This document shows, piece after piece, positions 8,941 through 18,677 of a stretch of 64,000 bases of DNA (position 1 is the stretch's first letter; every line of letters begins with the position of its first letter). This DNA is from Cellvibrio mixtus subsp. mixtus J3-8 (lineage in GTDB: Bacteria > Pseudomonadota > Gammaproteobacteria > Pseudomonadales > Cellvibrionaceae): assembly GCF_000766945.1 (NCBI RefSeq), contig NZ_KN266207.1, positions 875,898-939,897 on the forward strand, written 5' to 3'. The notes beneath the pieces are model-generated. The model searched no databases, was not told where the DNA came from, and saw only the letters and a program-made list of their open reading frames with translations. A program made the position numbers and the translations under genes.

Positions 8941-10593
8941 TCAAAAACCGGTTTTTATTCGAACAGATATTTGGTATTTATCAATTCCAGGTCCATCATC
9001 CAATGCATATGCAAAATCAATGTGACCAACATTATGCGCCCCATCATCGCGCCCACCGGTGCGAGTTCCGGAAATTCGTAAACCAATTCCAATATCGCGC
9101 AATGTTTTCTGGTAATCCTGCGGTACATTAGAATTTCCCCAGGCTTTACCTTCATCATAAAAAACAGCTGCGCCGAGATGAAATAATGAAAACCATTCTG
9201 TTTCACCAAAATAGCGCTGTTCAACAGTAAGTAATCTCGAACGATCTCCAGCCATAAACCTCGCGGGATAACCTCTTAAGCCAGTATCACCTCCGAGTTC
9301 CAATGGCATATCGGCAAACAAATTCTTTCCGTAGGTTTCATTCATAGTTACATAAAATTGGCCGCGCGAAAAATTCTGCCAGTGATAGCTAATATCCAGT
9401 TTAGAAATAGATTGTGTACTTTGTTTGCTGCTGTAAAAACCCGTTGTGGAGAATTCACCCGTGAGCAATTGTGATGGGGTAAATTGAAAGGCTTTGCTGT
9501 ATTCGAGCTCAAGAAGAGTGGAACCATCAAGGGGCTCTGTATTTGCCATCACCTTACCGATACGTGCTCGCCATTGTGAGCCAAGGTTAAAATCCTCAAT
9601 ACGATTAATTTGTTGGATGTTAAGTGATTTGATAAATCGGTTATGGAGGTAGGAATATTCAAACCAGGCTATGTTGTAATCCCGGTTAAACGGCAATTCT
9701 CCATCATAACTATTTGTAGCACCCGGAACTTCAAAAAAATCATGTTTAACACTATCCCAACCTAGCGTCCAGCGCATCGTTCTATCATCTGTCGATGAAT
9801 CCAGGCGCTGTCCATAAAATACCGAATAGTTAGTTCCGTCATGGCCAAATCGCCACGCTTCGTCACCAGCGTTATAAAGTGTATCTTCACGCTCAAAATC
9901 GAGCATATCAAAGCCGGCAGTCCAGGGAGTTCGAATGGATCGAAACGGGTTACTAAAATGAAACTCCTGTTGTTTTCCATCACTATTGTCGGCATAAGCT
10001 AAAGCAAGTTGTTTGTCATTACCAAAATTGGGATCGCGATAAACAATAATATTACTGGTGCGATCAACGCTTGAGTTTTGCTCAACCTTTACCGTTTTTC
10101 CTAATCCGAGAAAATTGGAGTCATGTAAACCGTAACCATAATGAGTGTTGCCGCCAGTATTTGAGTAGGTAATTTTTGGAATTAGTGTCCATACTTCACG
10201 GACGTCAACGTGTATTTTTTGGCCGACGCCTTGTGTTGTATCGGAATTGTCTTGTGAAGTTACTTTTGCTTCAGCAAAATAGCGTCGCTCACGCAATCGC
10301 CGCTCGCTTTCTTCCAGTAAATGCTTGTCCAGCGGATCGCCTTTTTTAAAGGTGAGATCTTTTTCGATAACATGTTTTTTAGTATCAATATGTAATCTAT
10401 TAACCAGGCGAAAGAGCATATTGTTTTCCTTGGGATTTGATTCATCAAATACCGGATGGACAACAACCGTTATCTCTTCGATCACTGGCGGGTTATTATT
10501 TGATTGTGCAGGAGCGGGCACAGGGTCTGCTCCATAGGCAAGGCGACAACCGAGTAAAGGCAATAAACCTAAACAAAAAAATTTACGCTCCAT
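8941..10593 (-). CDS. Omp85/BamA-family outer-membrane protein with a short POTRA region
   Basis: A 550-residue exported protein with an N-terminal signal peptide ending near AYG-AD. A POTRA-like region (about 40-135) is followed by a barrel of about 400 residues. GDTGLRGYP near residue 440 corresponds to the conserved loop-6 (V/L)RG(F/Y) motif of Omp85 proteins, and the chain ends in phenylalanine. Only one or two POTRA repeats fit, against five in BamA and three in TamA, so this is neither of those. It lies 57 nt after eptA on the same strand and may belong to that operon. Its substrate is unknown; a role in assembling or moving envelope components is inference. Confidence 0.8.
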   Translation of the reverse strand: MERKFFCLGLLPLLGCRLAYGADPVPAPAQSNNNPPVIEEITVVVHPVFDESNPKENNMLFRLVNRLHIDTKKHVIEKDLTFKKGDPLDKHLLEESERRLRERRYFAEAKVTSQDNSDTTQGVGQKIHVDVREVWTLIPKITYSNTGGNTHYGYGLHDSNFLGLGKTVKVEQNSSVDRTSNIIVYRDPNFGNDKQLALAYADNSDGKQQEFHFSNPFRSIRTPWTAGFDMLDFEREDTLYNAGDEAWRFGHDGTNYSVFYGQRLDSSTDDRTMRWTLGWDSVKHDFFEVPGATNSYDGELPFNRDYNIAWFEYSYLHNRFIKSLNIQQINRIEDFNLGSQWRARIGKVMANTEPLDGSTLLELEYSKAFQFTPSQLLTGEFSTTGFYSSKQSTQSISKLDISYHWQNFSRGQFYVTMNETYGKNLFADMPLELGGDTGLRGYPARFMAGDRSRLLTVEQRYFGETEWFSLFHLGAAVFYDEGKAWGNSNVPQDYQKTLRDIGIGLRISGTRTGGRDDGAHNVGHIDFAYALDDGPGIDKYQISVRIKTGF

Positions 10594-10650: not shown

Positions 10651-12348
10651 TTAATGGTGACTAATACAAGGGGCATAAATATCTAAATTCGGTTGATAAT
10701 ATTTAGTCCTGATATCAAGTAATCCTAAAAATGAATGAAAAATATTATCGTGACTAAACTCTTTATTTTTCAGGCCTGCCAGGCATTCTTTGCTCAAACC
10801 TCTATCGCGATAAAAATTGGATGATGCCCAGAAAATGAAAGGAACATTTTTTTGATGCTCAGGTGCGAAGGCGTATGGCATACCATGCAAGTACAAATTA
10901 TTTTCCCCCAGGGATTCCCCGTGATCAGAGACGTAAACCATAGCGGTGTTGTAAGCAGATTGCTGGTTGGTTAACCAATCAATGACTTTACTGAGAAAAT
11001 AGTCGGTATAGCGGATGGTGTTATCATATGCATTGACAACTTCTTCAGTTGAGCAATCTTGTAATTTATTTGTGCTGCAAACGGGTTGATACACCCGCAT
11101 TGAATCCGGGTAACGTTGGTCATAAGCAGGGCCATGGCTACCATTTTGATGTAACACAATAAATTGGTTTCGCCCTGTGAGCTTATTCGATAATTTATCC
11201 AGGAGAGCCTCGTCATAGCAGTTACCATCCTTGCAATTTGCAGAAGAAACCAGCTCATCAGGGGACTCATACACAACCCGATCACAGGTACCTTTGCATC
11301 CGGAATTATTATCCCTCCAGAGTACATCAATACCGGCTGTACTGATGAAATCCAATAAACCATGTTGGGTTTTGGCTTTGCCGTCACTGTATTCCGAGCG
11401 AGCGAGTGCAGAAAACATGCAAGGCAAAGACACAGCGGTGGATGTACCGCAGGAAGAAAAATGGTTGAAATTGATAATATCTTTTTGCGCGAGCAACGGA
11501 GTAGTGTTTCGTTGATATCCATTCAGGCCGAAGTTCGCAGCGCGAGCAGTTTCTCCTACAACAAATATAATCAATAACGGTTTTGTTTGCCGGATAGTGC
11601 CGGTTCCCAATTGTGCATCATGGCTGATTGGATTTATCACTACCGGGCGCTGGCTGTTTTCTTTCAATAGGGAAACACCCGCATTAACAAACCCTAAAGG
11701 GTTCGCTAAAAACCGCACTTCCTTGTGATTGCGAAAAAAAGAACTGTAATAATCTGAAAGGCTCAATATTAGTAATAATGAGATGATCAAGGATAATCCT
11801 GTTGGAACAGTGCGATTCCTTAATTCTTGCCAGAAACTTCCCCAGAGGATTCGGGTTTTGACAACCATTAAAGATGGCAAGACCCCAAGGAAAAAAATAT
11901 AACCAATCAAATGTAAATTGATTAAACCTTTCGCCTCCTTCGTATCGGTTTCCCACACGTTTCTAAGCATTTCCTTATCGATCACAACACCATAGGTATC
12001 CATAAAATGAGCAGCAAATGCGCCCCCTAGCAGTAAAAATACACTGACAGGTTTAACAAGGCCGGGAATGCATAGCAGATTAATAAGGAAAAACGTTAAT
12101 AGCCACAACAATGGCACCAGGCTAATAGCAAAAAGGGCGGCGCTCAATGAATCTATTGCCTGGGTATTCCATGCTTCAAAAAAAAAGGATTTATTAAATA
12201 ACAATACAAATACTAACGATAGGCCTAATGAAAAATATTGGCCAGGTATCTGAACACTGAATGAGTCAAGGCGCTGACGCATTAACAATAGAAATGCCAG
12301 CTGAGTATTGTATAAACTCTTGAACGCAAGATTATTGGGTAGATTCAT
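10651..12348 (-). CDS. eptA: phosphoethanolamine--lipid A transferase (EptA/MCR family)
   Basis: Inner-membrane enzyme moving phosphoethanolamine from phosphatidylethanolamine to lipid A, which lowers surface charge and polymyxin binding. The 565-residue protein has about five N-terminal helices (residues 40-200) and a periplasmic sulfatase-like domain. Conserved sites include E266 in VVGETAR and the nucleophile T304 in CGTSTA, with the flanking cysteines C300 and C310 that form a disulphide in MCR-1. YVSDHGES and the late HGMP motif carry further metal ligands. It overlaps the PAP2 gene by 17 nt. A PmrA-type box precedes that gene, which matches how eptA is controlled in enteric bacteria. 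Family call very firm; lipid A as acceptor is by family. Confidence 0.93.
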   Translation of the reverse strand: MNLPNNLAFKSLYNTQLAFLLLMRQRLDSFSVQIPGQYFSLGLSLVFVLLFNKSFFFEAWNTQAIDSLSAALFAISLVPLLWLLTFFLINLLCIPGLVKPVSVFLLLGGAFAAHFMDTYGVVIDKEMLRNVWETDTKEAKGLINLHLIGYIFFLGVLPSLMVVKTRILWGSFWQELRNRTVPTGLSLIISLLLILSLSDYYSSFFRNHKEVRFLANPLGFVNAGVSLLKENSQRPVVINPISHDAQLGTGTIRQTKPLLIIFVVGETARAANFGLNGYQRNTTPLLAQKDIINFNHFSSCGTSTAVSLPCMFSALARSEYSDGKAKTQHGLLDFISTAGIDVLWRDNNSGCKGTCDRVVYESPDELVSSANCKDGNCYDEALLDKLSNKLTGRNQFIVLHQNGSHGPAYDQRYPDSMRVYQPVCSTNKLQDCSTEEVVNAYDNTIRYTDYFLSKVIDWLTNQQSAYNTAMVYVSDHGESLGENNLYLHGMPYAFAPEHQKNVPFIFWASSNFYRDRGLSKECLAGLKNKEFSHDNIFHSFLGLLDIRTKYYQPNLDIYAPCISHH

Positions 12349-13030
12349 AGGGCTTTAACATCACTTCGTAGCAAATAAGAGAAACCATCCAGCAAATACC
12401 TAATGACCAGATATCGTGCGAGAGAAAATGGGCGCCGCGTAATTGTTGTGAAATTCCGAAAACAATACCCAATGACAATGAGAAAAATAACGCTGGCCAA
12501 CGCCAGAATGATTTTGAGTATAGCCCAACAAAATAAAGTGCTACCCACGCGAAGCCGGCACTCGCGTGTCCAGCTGGAAAGCATTGGCTACCATTGCGAA
12601 CCCAAAGTTGCTCTATTAATGACAGGTATTCTTGCGTGCCACCGTAACGGGAAAAGTCCCAGGGGCATGAAATGTTAGTGAAGATTTTGCCGACACTGAC
12701 GATTAGTGATCCTGAAATAGTGGCCACGGATAAATATTGCAATCGGTGTTTCCATGCAGCCAATAGCGGAGAGATGTAGGACAGGAGCAGCAACATTACT
12801 ACACTAAACAATAAGGCAATGGAAAAATACTTTCCGCCCTTATGGATAAGCACTGCAGTAACCCATTCGTTTTTAAAATACCATTGGTTGCCTTCCGATT
12901 GATAAATAAAATCGGCGAGAGCCTGGTCCAAGCCAGTAATTTCTATTATTACGCTGATAAAAATTAATGTCGCCAGTACTTTAGCTGAGGCAAACAATAA
13001 AGATTTTTTGTCTATGCTGCTCATAAACAT
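12332..13030 (-). CDS. PAP2-family membrane phosphatase, possible lipid A phosphatase
   Basis: A 232-residue membrane protein with about six helices. PAP2 motifs are recognisable: K115-x6-C122-P123 (Arg of the usual KxxxxxxRP replaced by Cys), PAGH at 152-155, and R198 with H205-D206. The replacement is also seen in PAP2 proteins found beside eptA genes, though I recall this rather than having checked it. The reaction would be removal of a phosphate from lipid A or undecaprenyl pyrophosphate, facing the periplasm. ATGs at 13030 and 13024 are both possible and neither has a clear Shine-Dalgarno. The eptA start overlaps its 3' end, so the two enzymes are coupled: one may clear a phosphate and the other decorate. 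Confidence 0.85.
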   Translation of the reverse strand: MFMSSIDKKSLLFASAKVLATLIFISVIIEITGLDQALADFIYQSEGNQWYFKNEWVTAVLIHKGGKYFSIALLFSVVMLLLLSYISPLLAAWKHRLQYLSVATISGSLIVSVGKIFTNISCPWDFSRYGGTQEYLSLIEQLWVRNGSQCFPAGHASAGFAWVALYFVGLYSKSFWRWPALFFSLSLGIVFGISQQLRGAHFLSHDIWSLGICWMVSLICYEVMLKPYESTQ

Positions 13031-13072: not shown

Positions 13073-13105
13073 ATATTACGTGGCAAAAATTAAGAGATCC
13101 TTAAG
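13073..13105 (-). promoter_or_regulatory. PmrA/BasR-type box and -10 element upstream of the PAP2-eptA operon
   Basis: Read on the minus strand, positions 13105-13089 give CTTAAG-N5-CTTAAT, a full match to the enteric PmrA consensus (C/T)TTAA(G/T)-N5-(C/T)TTAA(G/T). After exactly 10 nt comes TAATAT (13078-13073), a good -10 hexamer. The PAP2 ATG is about 43 nt further on. Confidence 0.72.
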
Positions 13106-13225
13106 TGTTTCAGAAACTGCACAGGCTGGATTTAATTGAAGAGGATTTAATTGGCAGGTTTTTTATTCGTCGGGGGTATAAATACAGAATAGATAATGCC
13201 CACTCCCAAAGCGGTGAAATGAGCT

Positions 13226-14050
13226 TTATATGGATGTACGATTCCGGCGATACCCATTCCAAAGCAGTATCAATAATAAAGGCATCACAGCCACCCAATA
13301 AAAAATAACTTGTATCGCGTTTGGGCTGGAGTCATAGCCTATAAGGGCATAGAGTAATTCGCCGAGCCAGGAATGTTCGTTAATGATGCTTGATGTATCC
13401 CACAAGGGAGTTGCAGAATCTAATATTCCAATTTGCAATAGCTGCCGGGCTATTTGCATTGAAAGCCCGCCGCATAGAAGAACGAGAAAAACAAATAAAA
13501 TATTTAAAAATGCGCGTGCCGAAATAAACACCAGGAGATAATAAGTAATTACTCCCAGGCTGGTACCTATACCGACACCGATAGCACCCCCGATTAGTGC
13601 AGACTGCAATAAATTCGGATCATGTAAGAAGCCTCCGACATAAATCCATATCTCTGCCACTTCTCGTGCAAGTGATAAACCAACAGCGAACACAGCGCAA
13701 AATATTAACTTTCGATACGGCTTTATTGATTCATTAGTGAGCGGTAAGTATTGAACATGGGAAGGTGTATTAAATAATAGTGGTGCAATTATTGAGGCGA
13801 TAACAATAAATGACAAAATTACCGAAAAATAGAGCAGGGCATTGATCCATTCCTGCCCGGTGCCATCAAATGCATCCGCGATAGCGTATGCGTAGCAGGC
13901 TAACAACCACGAGCTTAGCATTCCCAGAGCCAGGGCAATTACTATCCAATTAAACGCGATGGATAATTTCCTGCTCATCACTAATAACATGGTAATAATT
14001 AGTGCTGCTTCCAACACTTCTCGCAATATCAATAAAATTGCATCAACCAT
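13226..14050 (-). CDS. FTR1-family iron permease
   Basis: Inner-membrane iron importer of the FTR1/EfeU family. The 274-residue protein has about seven helices and both iron-binding REXXE motifs: REVLE at 10-14 and REVAE at 129-133. It starts 10 nt after the cupredoxin gene, and this pairing of FTR1 with a periplasmic cupredoxin domain is known from Efe-type systems. Here no EfeB peroxidase or full EfeO follows. The gene is last in an operon led by the PmrA/PmrB-like regulators, so its expression should follow theirs. Confidence 0.9.
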   Translation of the reverse strand: MVDAILLILREVLEAALIITMLLVMSRKLSIAFNWIVIALALGMLSSWLLACYAYAIADAFDGTGQEWINALLYFSVILSFIVIASIIAPLLFNTPSHVQYLPLTNESIKPYRKLIFCAVFAVGLSLAREVAEIWIYVGGFLHDPNLLQSALIGGAIGVGIGTSLGVITYYLLVFISARAFLNILFVFLVLLCGGLSMQIARQLLQIGILDSATPLWDTSSIINEHSWLGELLYALIGYDSSPNAIQVIFYWVAVMPLLLILLWNGYRRNRTSI

Positions 14051-14060
14051 ATGCCGACCT

Positions 14061-14390
14061 TTAATGTTGTGCGCGAATCACGCCCTGGGCAGTTTTGGGA
14101 TTAAATTCACCAAAAAAGGGATAGTCCCCCGACTTTAAGGGACCAATAAATATTACCGCCCTGGCCCCACCCATAATGACTTTTTCGCGGTTAAGCTCAT
14201 AGCTCTCAAACTCTTCAGGCGTTGGATCTTTATTAATAATAATTAATTTTACTTTGGTATCAGCGGGCACAACCAGTGTTGAAGGGAAGAATAAGTGATC
14301 GTGAATTTCAATCGTAAATTCCGGTACCGTCGCGGCTGAAATAGCGGGGGACATGCAGAGTAATATTAAGATGAATTTCCTAAATATCAT
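14061..14390 (-). CDS. periplasmic cupredoxin-fold protein partnered with FTR1
   Basis: A 109-residue exported protein with a signal peptide of about 19 residues (ending AISA) and a single small beta-sandwich of the Cupredoxin_1 type. The segment EEFESYELNR and the late YPFFGEFNP are typical of FTR1-linked cupredoxins. The Cys ligand of type 1 copper proteins is missing, so acidic residues and a few others would have to bind metal. Its start overlaps the histidine kinase gene by 11 nt. It probably delivers or oxidises iron for the permease encoded next. Confidence 0.85.
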   Translation of the reverse strand: MIFRKFILILLCMSPAISAATVPEFTIEIHDHLFFPSTLVVPADTKVKLIIINKDPTPEEFESYELNREKVIMGGARAVIFIGPLKSGDYPFFGEFNPKTAQGVIRAQH

Positions 14391-15768
14391 TCGTTTTTTC
14401 TCCTTTTTTTCCAGCAGTAAATTTCACTGTCACCAATAATCCTGATGCGAACGATGATTGGGTAAGGCGAATATCTGCCTGATGTAAATCCACTACTTGT
14501 TTTGCGATAGACAAGCCTAATCCGCAACCAGGGGTTCCTGAATCATGGCGATCACCATGCAACCGGTAAAAGCGGTCAAATACTCGTTCACGCTGCTCCA
14601 CGGGAATGCCCGGGCCGTTGTCCATAACTTCCAGTATCACAACATTCCCTCGAAGCCAGGTATGTAACACTACGTGCCCGTTTTTTTGCGTATATTTAAT
14701 GGCATTGCCCAATAAATTATTAATTAATGTTTCGAGGGCGGTAGCATCGCCATTTATCCAGCATTCGTCGCCGTCAAATTCAATATTGATATCTTTATCA
14801 CTCAATGCTTCGCTGGCCGATACAATGACTTGTTTCGTTAATGCCGTAAGGTTAACGGGTTTGAACTGACTCATAAAATGGTCTGGCGATGTTTTATTGA
14901 GCAATAAAATTTGTTCCACCAAGTAGCGCATGCGTTTGATGCCCTGTTGTAATTTGTGCGCAGATTCAGGTACGGGGTTAACTTCATGCAATAAGTTTTC
15001 ACAATGGATATTTAATGCGGCGATCGGTGTTCGCAATTCGTGCGCAGCATCGGCTGAAAAACGTTGCTCCCGGATAAATGAAGATTCCAGCCTGCGCAGC
15101 AATTCGTTTGCAGATTGCGCCAACTGCAGCAGTTCAATAGGCATATTTTGGTGTTCTATGGGGCGCAAGTCAGTGGCTTCCCGTGCATGAAATTCTTTTG
15201 CAAGCACCGCTACCGGCTTTAAGCCAATTCCCAAAACCCACCAAATAACAAAACCAATCAGTGGAATAGCGATTACCATCGGGGACACTGCTTGCAGGAT
15301 TATGGATTCAGCGAGGCGATAACGTTGATCATCACGCTCCGCTAATAAATACCAACCTGAATTATTTGCCGCCTCTGCCACCAATACGTGCCAACGATAA
15401 TGATTAAAATTAGCAAACTGATTGCCCGCTTTTAAATCAGTAATTATTTCGTTTGGCATAGCGGCCGAGCGCGCAAGCAATTTCCCCTCGTTACTGACCC
15501 ACTGGAATTGCAAATCGGCTATTTGCGGGGATGATGAATCATTTTTCTGTGGTGTAGGAAATATTTCCGGAGCAGGGCGTTGCAAATATTCCTGGTAACG
15601 AGAGGGCAATACGTAATCAAGTAGATCCACTTGTTGTAGCAACCGTTTATTAAACAATCGTTCTGCTTCTTCCATACTCCCAAGGTAACCGCGCACCGCA
15701 GCAGCAAAATTGGCCAGCGTTACTATTGCTACCAGCAACACAACCAAAAATATGCGGATGGATTTCAT
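14380..15768 (-). CDS. sensor histidine kinase, PmrB/QseC-like
   Basis: A 462-residue inner-membrane kinase: helix 1 (about 4-24), periplasmic sensor domain, helix 2 (about 163-182), HAMP-like linker, dimerisation domain with phospho-acceptor H243 in AAHELRTP, and an ATPase domain with the N-box (NAIKYT) and VMDNGPGIP. The periplasmic part has acidic E33-E-A-E36 just after helix 1, an ExxE pattern like the ferric-iron site of PmrB, though QseC-type kinases have acidic residues there too. Its ATG overlaps the response-regulator stop by 4 nt. With FTR1 and a cupredoxin downstream and PmrA boxes upstream, iron sensing is a reasonable inference. Confidence 0.9.
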   Translation of the reverse strand: MKSIRIFLVVLLVAIVTLANFAAAVRGYLGSMEEAERLFNKRLLQQVDLLDYVLPSRYQEYLQRPAPEIFPTPQKNDSSSPQIADLQFQWVSNEGKLLARSAAMPNEIITDLKAGNQFANFNHYRWHVLVAEAANNSGWYLLAERDDQRYRLAESIILQAVSPMVIAIPLIGFVIWWVLGIGLKPVAVLAKEFHAREATDLRPIEHQNMPIELLQLAQSANELLRRLESSFIREQRFSADAAHELRTPIAALNIHCENLLHEVNPVPESAHKLQQGIKRMRYLVEQILLLNKTSPDHFMSQFKPVNLTALTKQVIVSASEALSDKDINIEFDGDECWINGDATALETLINNLLGNAIKYTQKNGHVVLHTWLRGNVVILEVMDNGPGIPVEQRERVFDRFYRLHGDRHDSGTPGCGLGLSIAKQVVDLHQADIRLTQSSFASGLLVTVKFTAGKKGEKTNDI

Positions 15769-16424
15769 TGGCGGGGAACCATATAACCAATACCACGCAT
15801 GGTACGAATAAAATCAGCGGGCAATTTTTTTCGCAAGTTGTGTATATGGACTTCAATCGCATTGCTGGAAACTTCGTCGCCCCAACTGTAGAGTTTTCCT
15901 TCAAGGCCTTCTTTGGTTTGAATAATCCCAACATGCTCGACCAATGCTTTTAACAACATATATTCCCGGCGCGATAAATTTATTGGTTCATTGTTTAACA
16001 ATGCCAGATGGTGGGCCGTATCCAATGTGACCGGGCCCACTTGTATCAGCGCGGTAGGCGCATTACCAAGTCGCCGTTCCAGTACGCGTAATCGCGCAAG
16101 TAATTCATCTACCTCAAAAGGCTTTGTAAGGTAATCATCCGCACCCGCATCCAGGCCTGCAACTTTCGCAGTAATACTGTCCCGTGCAGTGAGAATCAAC
16201 ACTTGTGTTGGAAATTGTTTTTGACGCACCTGTTGAAGCAAATCCATACCGTCCATATCGGGCAATCCCAGGTCCAACAGGAGAATGTCCGGAGACTCGG
16301 CGGCAAGATAAGCGCTCGCAGTCTTGCCATTATCTAACCAGGTAACGGCGAATCCGGAGCGTTTAAGCGCAGTTACAATTCCATCAGCAAGAAGGCTGTC
16401 ATCTTCAACTAACAATATGTGCAT
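15765..16424 (-). CDS. OmpR-family response regulator, PmrA/QseB-like
   Basis: A 219-residue transcription regulator. The receiver domain has the acidic pocket E7-D8-D9, phospho-acceptor D51 in LLLDLGLPDMDG, and the conserved lysine in DDYLTKPF near 101. The C-terminal winged helix (about 125-219) ends in RTMRGIGYMV, as in PmrA and QseB. GAGGG lies 6 nt before the ATG. It heads an operon with the kinase, cupredoxin and FTR1 genes. A PmrA-type box with a -10 element lies 130-160 nt upstream on the same strand, so the operon is probably autoregulated. Confidence 0.93.
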   Translation of the reverse strand: MHILLVEDDSLLADGIVTALKRSGFAVTWLDNGKTASAYLAAESPDILLLDLGLPDMDGMDLLQQVRQKQFPTQVLILTARDSITAKVAGLDAGADDYLTKPFEVDELLARLRVLERRLGNAPTALIQVGPVTLDTAHHLALLNNEPINLSRREYMLLKALVEHVGIIQTKEGLEGKLYSWGDEVSSNAIEVHIHNLRKKLPADFIRTMRGIGYMVPRQ

Positions 16425-16553
16425 TCCAATCCCTCTTTTTAGGATACCAATCTTTCATGACGCAGAAACTGCTCAAGATTGGTGTTGCGAAACAAAAAGC
16501 TTACGCAATTATAGCTTTAGAATTGGGCGCTACAGCCTGATTAGTCGGGGCGC

Positions 16554-16586
16554 AGGGTAAAAAAGGAAACTTAAGGGATGCTTAAG
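16554..16586 (-). promoter_or_regulatory. PmrA-type box and -10 element for the response-regulator operon
   Basis: CTTAAG-N5-CTTAAG at 16570-16586; the half-sites are palindromic, so it reads the same class on both strands. On the minus strand, 10 nt beyond the box lies TACCCT (16559-16554), a weak -10. The leader to the ATG at 16424 would be about 120 nt. Another leftward -10-like TATAAT lies at 16513-16508. Confidence 0.62.
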
Positions 16587-16636
16587 GTGCGCCTTTTAAA
16601 CGCAACAATAAGAAAACTTTATTTGTTTATCCGATT

Positions 16637-16669
16637 CTTAAGAATCACTTAAGTTTCAGTGGTTAGCAT
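16637..16669 (+). promoter_or_regulatory. PmrA-type box and -10 element upstream of the LtaS/OpgB-like gene
   Basis: CTTAAG-N5-CTTAAG at 16637-16653, followed after exactly 10 nt by TAGCAT at 16664-16669. The ATG of the phosphoglycerol-transferase-like gene is at 16701, leaving a leader of roughly 25 nt. Confidence 0.68.
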
Positions 16670-16700
16670 GCCGCACTTTTTACTCAGGGTTAACTGAACA

Positions 16701-18677
16701 ATGCCGTCTATTACCAGGTCTTCCCGTGCAAGTGTTTTTGGTCCTTACATATATTTGGTACGTATGGCGGTTTTATCCCTGTTAGTACTCGGTATTAGCC
16801 GTATAGCGCTCGTAGGCTGGAATTATGACCGGGTGATGGCCGCCGGAAATCCGGGCAGCATTTTTTTCCAGGGCGTGAGAGCAGACATTATCCTTGTTTG
16901 CTTATGGCTTTTAATACCTGTTTTATGTGCACCACTGTTTGCATGGAGCCGTTGGGCAACAATCTGGTTTAAGGGGACTTATATATGGTGCCTTATCGGA
17001 TTGATCAGCATCTTGTTTATGGAACTGGCAACGCCGGCATTCCTGATGCAATTTGATAGCAGGCCGAATCGTCTTTTCATTGAATATTTAAAATATCCGC
17101 AAGAAGTTCTATCAACTTTATGGCATGGATTCAGGCTGCCATTTATTAGCGGTTTACTATTAACAATATTATTAGGATATGGGCTTCATTGTCTTCTGCG
17201 TTTACCAACACCATCTTTAGCCTTATGGTCCCCGGCAAAAAATTTGTTAGTGTGGCCATTGGTTTTCGTTGCAGTGTTTATGGGGATCCGCTCTACGACA
17301 GCCCATCGTCCTGCAAACCCTGCGTTGTTTGCTATTACCAGTGATTCAATGGTGAATTCATTGATCATCAACTCCGGCTACTCCGTTCTTTATGCGCTCT
17401 ACAGTATGAAACATGAAGCTCGTTCCAGTGAGATTTATGGAAAATTATCGACACACGAAATGCTTCAATACAGCCTTGATTGGCCATGGTTAAAAACTTA
17501 TCAATTTAATCATTCTGAATATCCTACCCTTCACCATCAATCGGCTGCATTTACCCATGACAAGCCCTTAAACCTGGTTATTATTTTGCAAGAAAGTATG
17601 GGAGCTACTTTTGTTAAGTCGCTCGGTGGCGTTGCAGTAACACCCGAACTGGAAAAGTTAGCGGAGGAGGGAATATGGTTTGAACATTTGTATGCTACCG
17701 GAACCCGCTCTGTACGCGGCATTGAGGCTGTGGTTTCAGGTTTTCCACCTACGCCGGCACAGAGCGTTGTAAAATTGTCTAACAGCCAAAATAATTTGGC
17801 GACGATTGCATCTGTACTTCAATCTGCGGGATATCAAACCCAATTTATCTATGGTGGTGAAGCGCACTTCGACAATATGCGCGGTTTTTTCACCAACAAT
17901 GGATTTCAGGATATTGTTGACATAAAAAAAATCGCCAACCCGGTTTTTGTCGCAAGTTGGGGCGCAAGTGATGAAGATCTTTTTAATACTGCTCAGCGGG
18001 AGCTAAATACTCTCCATAAAGCAGGAAAACCATTTTTTAGTCTGATTTTTACCTCAAGTAATCACGCGCCTTTTGAATTTCCTGACAATCGCATAACGTT
18101 ATTCGAGCAACCCAAAAATACAGCCAACAATGCAGTTAAATATGCTGACTGGGCCATGGGACGTTTTATCGAGCAGGCCAAACAAAGTGATTATTGGAAA
18201 AATACAGTTTTTCTGATTGTGGCTGACCACGACAATCGCGTTTACGGTAACAATCTTATTCCCGTTGAAAAGTTTCAAATCCCCGGATTAATTCTTGGTG
18301 CAGACATAAAGCCATCAAAAATATCGATGCTAGGTAGCCAAATTGATTTGGCCCCCACATTATTATCATTGATGGGAATTTCAACTTGTCACCCAATGAT
18401 CGGACGTGACTTTGCCAGCGACCGTGAAAGTCCCGGCCGCGCAATTTTACAATTCGAAGATTATTTCGCATTAATGGAACAAGACAAAATCACTATTTTA
18501 AAGCCCGATCAAACAGCAGTTATTGCACACTATAACGAGCAAAAGAAAATTCTGGATATTTCAGGACACGCATCTGAAACTGAAATGAAAAGGGCGCTAG
18601 CGCATGTACAACTCCCATCGTATTTATATCGCGAGCGGCGCTATCCCAACGTGCCTGATTGCTACCGTAGAAAATAA
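16701..18677 (+). CDS. LTA synthase family / sulfatase-like membrane phosphotransferase (OpgB-like)
   Basis: A 658-residue inner-membrane enzyme with about five helices in the first 210 residues and a periplasmic alkaline-phosphatase-type domain (290-640). LQESMG with E298 and GTRSVRG with T335 match the metal-binding Glu and nucleophile Thr of LtaS-type enzymes, and VADHDNR near 513 supplies further metal ligands. LtaS polymerises glycerol phosphate in Gram-positives; Gram-negative relatives such as OpgB add phosphoglycerol to periplasmic glucans. Which acceptor is used here is unknown. The Shine-Dalgarno is weak and distant. A PmrA-type box lies directly upstream. Confidence 0.85.
   Translation: MPSITRSSRASVFGPYIYLVRMAVLSLLVLGISRIALVGWNYDRVMAAGNPGSIFFQGVRADIILVCLWLLIPVLCAPLFAWSRWATIWFKGTYIWCLIGLISILFMELATPAFLMQFDSRPNRLFIEYLKYPQEVLSTLWHGFRLPFISGLLLTILLGYGLHCLLRLPTPSLALWSPAKNLLVWPLVFVAVFMGIRSTTAHRPANPALFAITSDSMVNSLIINSGYSVLYALYSMKHEARSSEIYGKLSTHEMLQYSLDWPWLKTYQFNHSEYPTLHHQSAAFTHDKPLNLVIILQESMGATFVKSLGGVAVTPELEKLAEEGIWFEHLYATGTRSVRGIEAVVSGFPPTPAQSVVKLSNSQNNLATIASVLQSAGYQTQFIYGGEAHFDNMRGFFTNNGFQDIVDIKKIANPVFVASWGASDEDLFNTAQRELNTLHKAGKPFFSLIFTSSNHAPFEFPDNRITLFEQPKNTANNAVKYADWAMGRFIEQAKQSDYWKNTVFLIVADHDNRVYGNNLIPVEKFQIPGLILGADIKPSKISMLGSQIDLAPTLLSLMGISTCHPMIGRDFASDRESPGRAILQFEDYFALMEQDKITILKPDQTAVIAHYNEQKKILDISGHASETEMKRALAHVQLPSYLYRERRYPNVPDCYRRK

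What the first reader, a model, noticed from the sequence alone, without database searches (positions are those of the whole stretch)
13073..16669. Three PmrA-type boxes with identical promoter spacing define a small regulon
Seen directly: CTTAAG-N5-CTTAA(G/T) at 13089-13105 (-), 16570-16586 (-) and 16637-16653 (+), each followed after exactly 10 nt by a TAnnnT hexamer. They face the PAP2-eptA operon, the response-regulator operon and the LtaS/OpgB-like gene. The consensus is that of enteric PmrA/BasR. Three such sites within 3.6 kb, next to the right genes and with equal spacing, are unlikely by chance. The inferred regulon includes a polymer-synthase-like gene and an iron permease, which is wider than the classical one.
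Basis: partly seen in the sequence, partly recalled or inferred. Interest (0 to 1): 0.72.

Follow-up and report, generated by a model that had tools for sequence, protein, structure and literature searches.

The report
Iron-linked regulator's three promoter boxes
A Cellvibrio-type bacterium carries three matching DNA switches through which one sensor-regulator pair very likely controls its own iron-permease operon and two sets of cell-envelope genes; the switch is of a known kind, but it is tied to an old iron-permease-linked regulator found in many bacteria.

Summary
Confirmed and largely explained. The three CTTAAG-N5-CTTAAK boxes exist, each followed after 10 nt by TAnnnT. In the 5.18 Mb genome CTTAAK-N5-YTTAAK-N10-TAnnnT occurs exactly three times, all here. 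PmrA-type boxes in E. coli show the same N10 spacing.

Comparison ties the boxes to the regulator at 15765-16424. Of 144 family genomes, 36 of 37 with a homologue of at least 54% identity carry the pattern, against 15 of 107 without. All 14 orthologous operons in the genus have a box with the N10 hexamer, two with one mismatch.

In 10 of 14 genus operons the box precedes T_hemolysin/AMP-ligase/haem-oxygenase-like/SDR/TPR genes that end in the regulator operon; here these are gone, and boxes serve the regulator operon, PAP2-eptA and an LtaS/OpgB-like gene. Orthology to enteric PmrA is unresolved. Binding, direction of control and signal are untested.

The parts
13073..13105 (-). Box 1 CTTAAGGATCTCTTAAT plus N10 plus -10-like TAATAT, promoter of PAP2-eptA
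   Evidence: counterpart before PAP2-eptA in G016 and G009
16554..16586 (-). Box 2 CTTAAGCATCCCTTAAG plus N10 plus TACCCT, promoter of the regulator operon (autoregulation)
   Evidence: counterpart in 14 of 14 genus operons with at most 1 mismatch
16637..16669 (+). Box 3 CTTAAGAATCACTTAAG plus N10 plus TAGCAT, promoter of the LtaS/OpgB-like gene
   Evidence: also before LtaS-like genes away from the regulator in G004 and G007
15765..16424 (-). OmpR-type response regulator, PmrA/QseB group, FTR1-linked clade
   Evidence: Pfam Response_reg + Trans_reg_C, NCBIfam, PDB best hit BasR 8jo2, best match of the genome to the PmrA model, 228.9 bits, the next 205.1, trees
14380..15768 (-). Sensor histidine kinase; heavy-metal-sensor and QseC models score best, both below cut-off
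14061..14390 (-). Cupredoxin-like protein, probably periplasmic
   Evidence: PF13473, E 1.7e-27
13226..14050 (-). FTR1/EfeU-type iron permease
   Evidence: PF03239 over cut-off; NF041756 57 bits against cut-off 255
12332..13030 (-). PAP2 phosphatase, lipid A phosphatase-like
   Evidence: PF01569; NF028538 92 bits below cut-off 275
10651..12348 (-). eptA, phosphoethanolamine-lipid A transferase
   Evidence: NF028537 605 bits over cut-off 500; the EptA equivalog NF008619 542 bits below its 660
8941..10593 (-). BamA/POTRA-like outer membrane protein behind eptA; relatives in G001 and G007 have a box of their own
   Evidence: membership in the eptA operon is inferred
16701..18677 (+). LtaS/OpgB-like membrane protein of the sulfatase fold; closest solved structure VP1736 (3lxq)

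Best explanation
The three boxes are binding sites of the phosphorylated response regulator encoded at 15765-16424. Two DNA-binding domains sit head to tail on half-sites 11 bp apart; the box lies where a -35 element would be (10 nt before the -10 hexamer), so the regulator most likely recruits sigma-70 polymerase as a class II activator. It thereby raises its own operon (regulator, kinase, cupredoxin, FTR1 permease), PAP2-eptA (lipid A modification, possibly with the BamA-like gene) and the LtaS/OpgB-like gene. Shown: sites, spacing, conservation, co-occurrence with this regulator. Inferred: binding, activation, operon limits. The signal is unknown; a metal such as iron is a guess from the permease and cupredoxin.
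For: Full pattern unique to this locus in the genome. N10 geometry the same at the PmrA-type boxes of E. coli pmrR, eptA and arnB. In 80 loci fetched by regulator similarity, 67 box-orientations have TAnnnT at offset 10 in 40 cases and in 0-4 at every other offset from 0 to 23. Of 34 loci with a T_hemolysin gene upstream of the regulator and at least 300 nt held before it, 24 have the strict box, all 24 with TAnnnT at N10; other spacers from N1 to N10 give 0-4 loci, none with the hexamer; 7 more have one mismatch plus the hexamer. Genus: pattern in 13 of 14 genomes with the orthologue, 0 of 7 without. Family outside the genus: 23 of 23 against 15 of 100. Before eptA genes (47% identity or more): box in 11 of 14 genes of regulator-bearing genus genomes, 0 of 5 in the others. 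DNA-recognition stretch close to BasR: SSNAIEVHIHNLRKK against STNTLEVHIHNLRDK.
Against: No binding or transcript data. Three regulator-bearing genomes (G005, G012, G014) have no box before their eptA and 9 of 16 LtaS-like genes have none, so these targets are not fixed. The only strict hit of G012 (C1:908127) is at an unrelated place overlapping the end of an ORF; its operon box is TTTAAT-type. Fifteen family genomes have the pattern without a homogue of 54% identity; in G026, G133 and G142 a weaker homologue stands within 3 kb, in others not. G017 (79% complete), where no orthologue was found, has a TTTAAG-type box at the start of a 30% identical transferase gene. Genomes in the tables are related, so p-values overstate independence, and the 54% line was drawn after seeing the list. 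A consensus sigma-70 site just past box 1 could serve PAP2 instead.
Confidence: 0.82

Rival explanations
1. The boxes are bound mainly by another PmrA/QseB-type regulator of the same cell, such as the one at C11:119510-120163 (46% identical), or by both through cross-talk.
For: PmrA and QseB overlap on targets in enterics (passages of PMC10729948, and PMC2653508). The C11 regulator is the second-best match to the PmrA model (205 bits) and has a one-mismatch box with TATTCT about 0.7 kb upstream. Some relatives hold a second regulator next to PAP2, eptA or the BamA-like gene.
Against: Boxes follow the FTR1-linked regulator: 13 of 14 against 0 of 7 genus genomes, although a second type occurs in G011, G013 and G015 without the pattern. 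A box stands before the FTR1-linked regulator's own operon in 14 of 14.
Confidence: 0.08
2. The regulator represses these promoters, its dimer blocking polymerase at the -35 region.
For: The box covers the -35 position, a place from which a bound protein can also block (established knowledge).
Against: The consensus scan found no sigma-70 site on the three hexamers, so they look activator-dependent. Same geometry as the E. coli PmrA-type boxes, whose genes are known as PmrA-activated (recalled).
Confidence: 0.09
3. Chance clustering of an AT-rich palindrome-like word.
For: Bare CTTAA-N6-CTTAA is only mildly over-represented in the genome (12 places against 2-8 for other gaps).
Against: Full pattern 3 hits, all here; boxes kept in orthologous operons and before eptA and LtaS-like genes elsewhere in relatives.
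Confidence: 0.01

Closest known systems
PmrA/PmrB (BasR/BasS) regulon of enterics
   Same: Box (C/T)TTAA(G/T)-N5-(C/T)TTAA(G/T) (passage of PMC10729948; CTTAA-N5-CTTAA in PMC1525208), N10 to the -10-like hexamer in E. coli, eptA among the targets, similar DNA-recognition stretch.
   Different: Regulator below the PmrA model cut-off, kinase not PmrB-like in its N-terminal part, operon with cupredoxin and FTR1, LtaS/OpgB-like target. arn genes were not searched for.
QseB/QseC (PreA/PreB)
   Same: Kinase matches the QseC model over its length, regulator scores close behind PmrA; the PreA list includes cytochrome b561 (passages of PMC2653508), and a b561-like gene (named by eye) stands by a box in G006, G014 and L040.
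   Different: Both scores are below cut-off; the QseB consensus printed in PMC10729948 is another sequence; grouping with QseB disfavoured but not rejected (p-AU 0.066).
FTR1/EfeU iron permease with cupredoxin partner (EfeUOB, FtrABCD; names recalled)
   Same: Permease and cupredoxin family members side by side.
   Different: Embedded in a two-component operon; no EfeB-like or ferredoxin gene among the annotated neighbours.

Membership tests
PmrA-box promoter | Two YTTAAK half-sites in direct repeat separated by 5 bp | tested here: met
PmrA-box promoter | Box 10 nt before the -10-like hexamer as at E. coli pmrR, eptA, arnB | tested here: met
PmrA-box promoter | Bound and activated by the phosphorylated regulator | not testable with these tools
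   needs gel shift, footprint, transcripts
PmrA (BasR) orthologue | Score over the curated PmrA model cut-off | tested here: not met
   229 bits against 330
PmrA (BasR) orthologue | Groups with BasR in a tree | tested here: inconclusive
   BasR outside the FTR1-linked clade on a long branch; p-AU 0.212 for holding them together; only E. coli BasR was available as named reference
PmrB kinase | ExxE iron-binding motif in the periplasmic part (recalled) | tested here: not met
   EEAE in the window kinase is not conserved: of 27 relatives aligned 8 have any E..E in the first 190 residues, and only L031 at this place, L036 one residue off
QseC kinase | Score over the curated QseC model cut-off | tested here: not met
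   180 bits against 475, over residues 4-448
PmrA regulon | eptA among direct targets | tested here: inconclusive
   box before PAP2-eptA here and before 11 of 14 eptA genes of regulator-bearing genus genomes; sequence evidence only

The most novel reading that the evidence does not exclude
The CTTAAG tandem box belongs to an old, widespread iron-permease-linked two-component system whose main target is an uncharacterised operon (T_hemolysin/AMP-ligase/haem-oxygenase-like/SDR/TPR), perhaps biosynthetic. Envelope targets eptA and LtaS/OpgB-like were added in some lines, and in the window's clade took over after the five metabolic genes were lost from the operon. The enteric link between iron and lipid A modification could then descend from this older metal-handling circuit.
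Probability: 0.3. Interest if true: 0.65.

Novelty: new variant of a known kind. Interest (0 to 1): 0.46.

Why it matters
It gives a sharply defined, testable regulon outside the enteric and clinical species: three promoters with one geometry, one regulator, an iron permease in the feedback loop. It also shows within one genus how the target list of a regulator changes while its DNA site and promoter spacing stay fixed, and it points to a conserved operon of unknown product whose promoter carries the same site from Vibrio to Cellvibrio.

Tried and rejected
Extra regulon members in this genome: the 9 other CTTAA-N6-CTTAA places were read and the one-mismatch scan gave 21 hits against 25 in the control; none is claimed. 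Iron sensing through an ExxE motif: not conserved. Orthology to PmrA or QseB: not resolved. Sigma-70 consensus scan: none of the three sites marked.

Literature, held library only: no paper holds Cellvibrio, two-component and PmrA together (0 papers) or PmrA and thermostable hemolysin (0 papers). Searches listed nothing on this system by title or start of abstract; only 12 of 84 papers were listed, 20 of 188. Passages only were seen of PMC1525208, PMC3973317, PMC10927774, PMC10729948 and PMC2653508; other papers as listings.

Deletion history: apart from G016 and G009, the window stretch 16425-16700 gave only short matches around boxes of relatives (81% over 37 nt to the T_hemolysin promoter of G016, 76% over 46 nt in G007, 88% over 25 nt in G006). 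This fits, but does not prove, that the regulator took over that promoter. The G016 remnant locus (L283) may be contamination: the assembly is listed with 7%.

Full report
Observation. Two of the three are made of palindromic CTTAAG hexamers, so only the -10-like hexamer gives them a direction. The bare word CTTAA-N6-CTTAA is found at 12 places in the 5,183,709-base genome, three of them here, against 2 to 8 places for the other gaps from 1 to 14 (two-strand duplicates merged and one tandem array counted once, by hand). None of the other 9 has TAnnnT at N10. CTTAAK-N5-YTTAAK-N10-TAnnnT has three hits, all here, and none for the reversed control. Opening the first base to Y adds two TTTAAT-type hits, and one mismatch gives 21 against 25 in the control, so the genome gives no sign of further members. 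The sigma-70 consensus scan did not mark the three hexamers; it did mark TTGCCA-17-TATTCT at 13086-13058 (-), a possible rival start for PAP2, in a scan with no more sites than shuffles.

Neighbours. The genes are a response regulator, a histidine kinase, a cupredoxin, an FTR1 permease, PAP2, eptA, a BamA/POTRA-like protein and, divergently, an LtaS/OpgB-like enzyme. Only eptA passes an NCBIfam cut-off (605 bits against 500 for phosphoethanolamine-lipid A transferase). The nearest solved structures by sequence are BasR for the regulator and Vibrio VP1736 (3lxq) for the LtaS-like protein.

Geometry. In E. coli K-12 the boxes before pmrR (CTTAAGGTTCACTTAAT) and eptA (CTTAAGGTTGGCTTAAT) are followed after 10 nt by CATACT and GAGCAT, and the one-mismatch arnB box (CTTAAGGTTAAGTTAAT) after 10 nt by TAAAAT. 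The box covers the -35 position.

Conservation of the operon box. In 35 a T_hemolysin gene lies upstream of the regulator, in 34 with at least 300 nt before it: 24 have the strict box and all 24 have TAnnnT exactly at N10; spacers N1-N4 and N6-N10 gave 0 to 4 loci and none with the hexamer; of the 10 misses, 7 have one mismatch with the hexamer, L035 one mismatch with CATCCT, L036 two mismatches with TAGCTT, and L038 nothing convincing. Over all 67 box-orientations in the 80 loci TAnnnT stands at offset 10 in 40 cases and at any other offset from 0 to 23 in 0 to 4.

Genus test. Twenty-one genus genomes were searched. The orthologue (73% identity or more) is in 14, not found in 7. The strict pattern occurs 27 times in 13 genomes, reversed control 4: 13 of 14 with the orthologue, 0 of 7 without. 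By the neighbours the 27 stand before the regulator operon (11), PAP2 or eptA (8), LtaS-like (2), a b561-like gene (2), a second cupredoxin in front of PAP2-eptA (1), a BamA-like gene (1), a second transferase (1) and at one unrelated place (G012:C1:908127). Every one of the 14 regulator operons has a box with at most one mismatch and the hexamer at N10 (12 without mismatch; G002 and G008 with one). Before eptA genes of 47% identity or more, 11 of 14 genes (9 of 12 genomes) in regulator-bearing genomes have a box (G006 with one mismatch; G007 and one copy of G010 with a CA-type hexamer); the misses are G005, G012 and G014; 0 of 5 genes in genomes without the regulator. Two of these genes are cut by contig ends (G019, one of G010) and the G002 match holds one stop. 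For the LtaS-like gene 7 of 16 have a box (five with TAnnnT at N10), all in regulator-bearing genomes; 0 of 4 in the others; the second copies in G000, G009 and G016 have none. Several boxed eptA and LtaS-like genes are far from the regulator (G001, G002, G004, G007), so the site is kept in trans. A second, 28-34% identical transferase gene has a box at or before its start in G006, G010, G017 and G019; G017 has no orthologue found but is 79% complete.

Family test. In 144 genomes of the family (genus included) the strict pattern has 75 hits and the reversed control 14 (both added up by eye). Of 37 genomes with a homologue of at least 54% identity 36 have it, against 15 of 107 without; outside the genus 23 of 23 against 15 of 100; in the largest other genus 19 of 19 against 2 of 29 (in one search the 20 best candidates per genome were scored). 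Relatedness makes the p-values too small. The 54% line was drawn after seeing the data; at 50% two more boxed genomes (G125, G142) and one unboxed (G045) would join. Three of the 15 exceptions have a weaker homologue within 3 kb of the box (G026, G133, G142); the others are not explained.

What the regulator is. In a tree of 122 rows all regulators whose locus shows the cupredoxin fall in one clade (56 rows, 100/98), next to a Vibrio/Marinomonas group (support of the join 95/51, weak) that has the T_hemolysin operon but no cupredoxin or permease match in the loci. E. coli BasR and QseB lie outside, BasR on a long branch. Holding BasR with this clade is not rejected (p-AU 0.212), QseB is at 0.066. 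The best kinase model is a heavy-metal sensor kinase, then QseC, both below cut-off. So it very likely works on a PmrA-type box; whether it is PmrA cannot be told. An ExxE motif is not conserved.

History. In 10 of the 14 genus operons the order is box, T_hemolysin (PF12261), AMP ligase, haem-oxygenase-like oxidase, SDR, TPR protein, regulator, kinase, and, where the contig reaches, cupredoxin, FTR1 and a further protein; 35 of the 80 wider loci have T_hemolysin upstream too. In G000, G009, G016 and G002 the first five genes are missing in front of the regulator and the box stands directly before it; in G000, G009 and G016 LtaS-like and PAP2-eptA stand beside it with their own boxes. G000, G002 and G009 have no T_hemolysin match at all. 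G016 has a separate T_hemolysin operon with its box, followed by fragments of a regulator and of FTR1, which looks like a decaying old locus unless it is contamination. In G008 LtaS-like already stands divergent to the complete operon, so loss of five genes could bring about the window's left-right layout. This is inference.

Verdict. A conserved, small regulon with PmrA-type boxes under an FTR1-linked regulator; new variant of a known kind. Binding, signal and direction of control rest on analogy.

Noticed in passing
L032:1450-5307 and upstream of the regulator in 10 of 14 genus operons: Conserved uncharacterised operon T_hemolysin, AMP ligase, haem-oxygenase-like oxidase, SDR, TPR protein under the same box; also in Vibrio, Marinomonas, Pseudoalteromonas and Methylophaga loci.
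   Followed up: partly
L283 (G016:C112:36000-45000): T_hemolysin operon with box followed by fragments of a regulator and an FTR1 permease; a decaying copy or contamination.
   Followed up: partly
L241, L243, L040:5336-5908: Cytochrome b561-like genes (in L241 and L243 next to a VIT-like transporter, names by eye) stand behind or beside a box; b561 is on the PreA list of Salmonella (PMC2653508, passages).
   Followed up: no
L040, L048, L060, L065 downstream of the cupredoxin: FTR1-like proteins of these Alteromonadales appear to lack the REXXE motif (recalled) seen in the window's permease, so they may not carry iron.
   Followed up: no
L229, L230, L231, L232: A second two-component pair (46-47% identical regulator) stands next to PAP2, eptA or the BamA-like gene in G001, G005, G011 and G012.
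   Followed up: partly
L037: A contig filed as Klebsiella pneumoniae MAG groups beside the Cellvibrio regulators and has an EptA-like gene (38%) inside the operon, just before the regulator; the label looks wrong.
   Followed up: no
L088:8246-10195: In Vibrio diabolicus an LtaS-like gene follows the kinase gene.
   Followed up: no
L072:5578-8332: In an unrelated gammaproteobacterial MAG a 49% identical regulator and a 35% identical LtaS-like gene stand side by side, each with a YTTAAK-N5-YTTAAK box but without TAnnnT at N10.
   Followed up: no
G000:C3:9151-9204: Tandem array of the 7-base unit CTTAATG.
   Followed up: no
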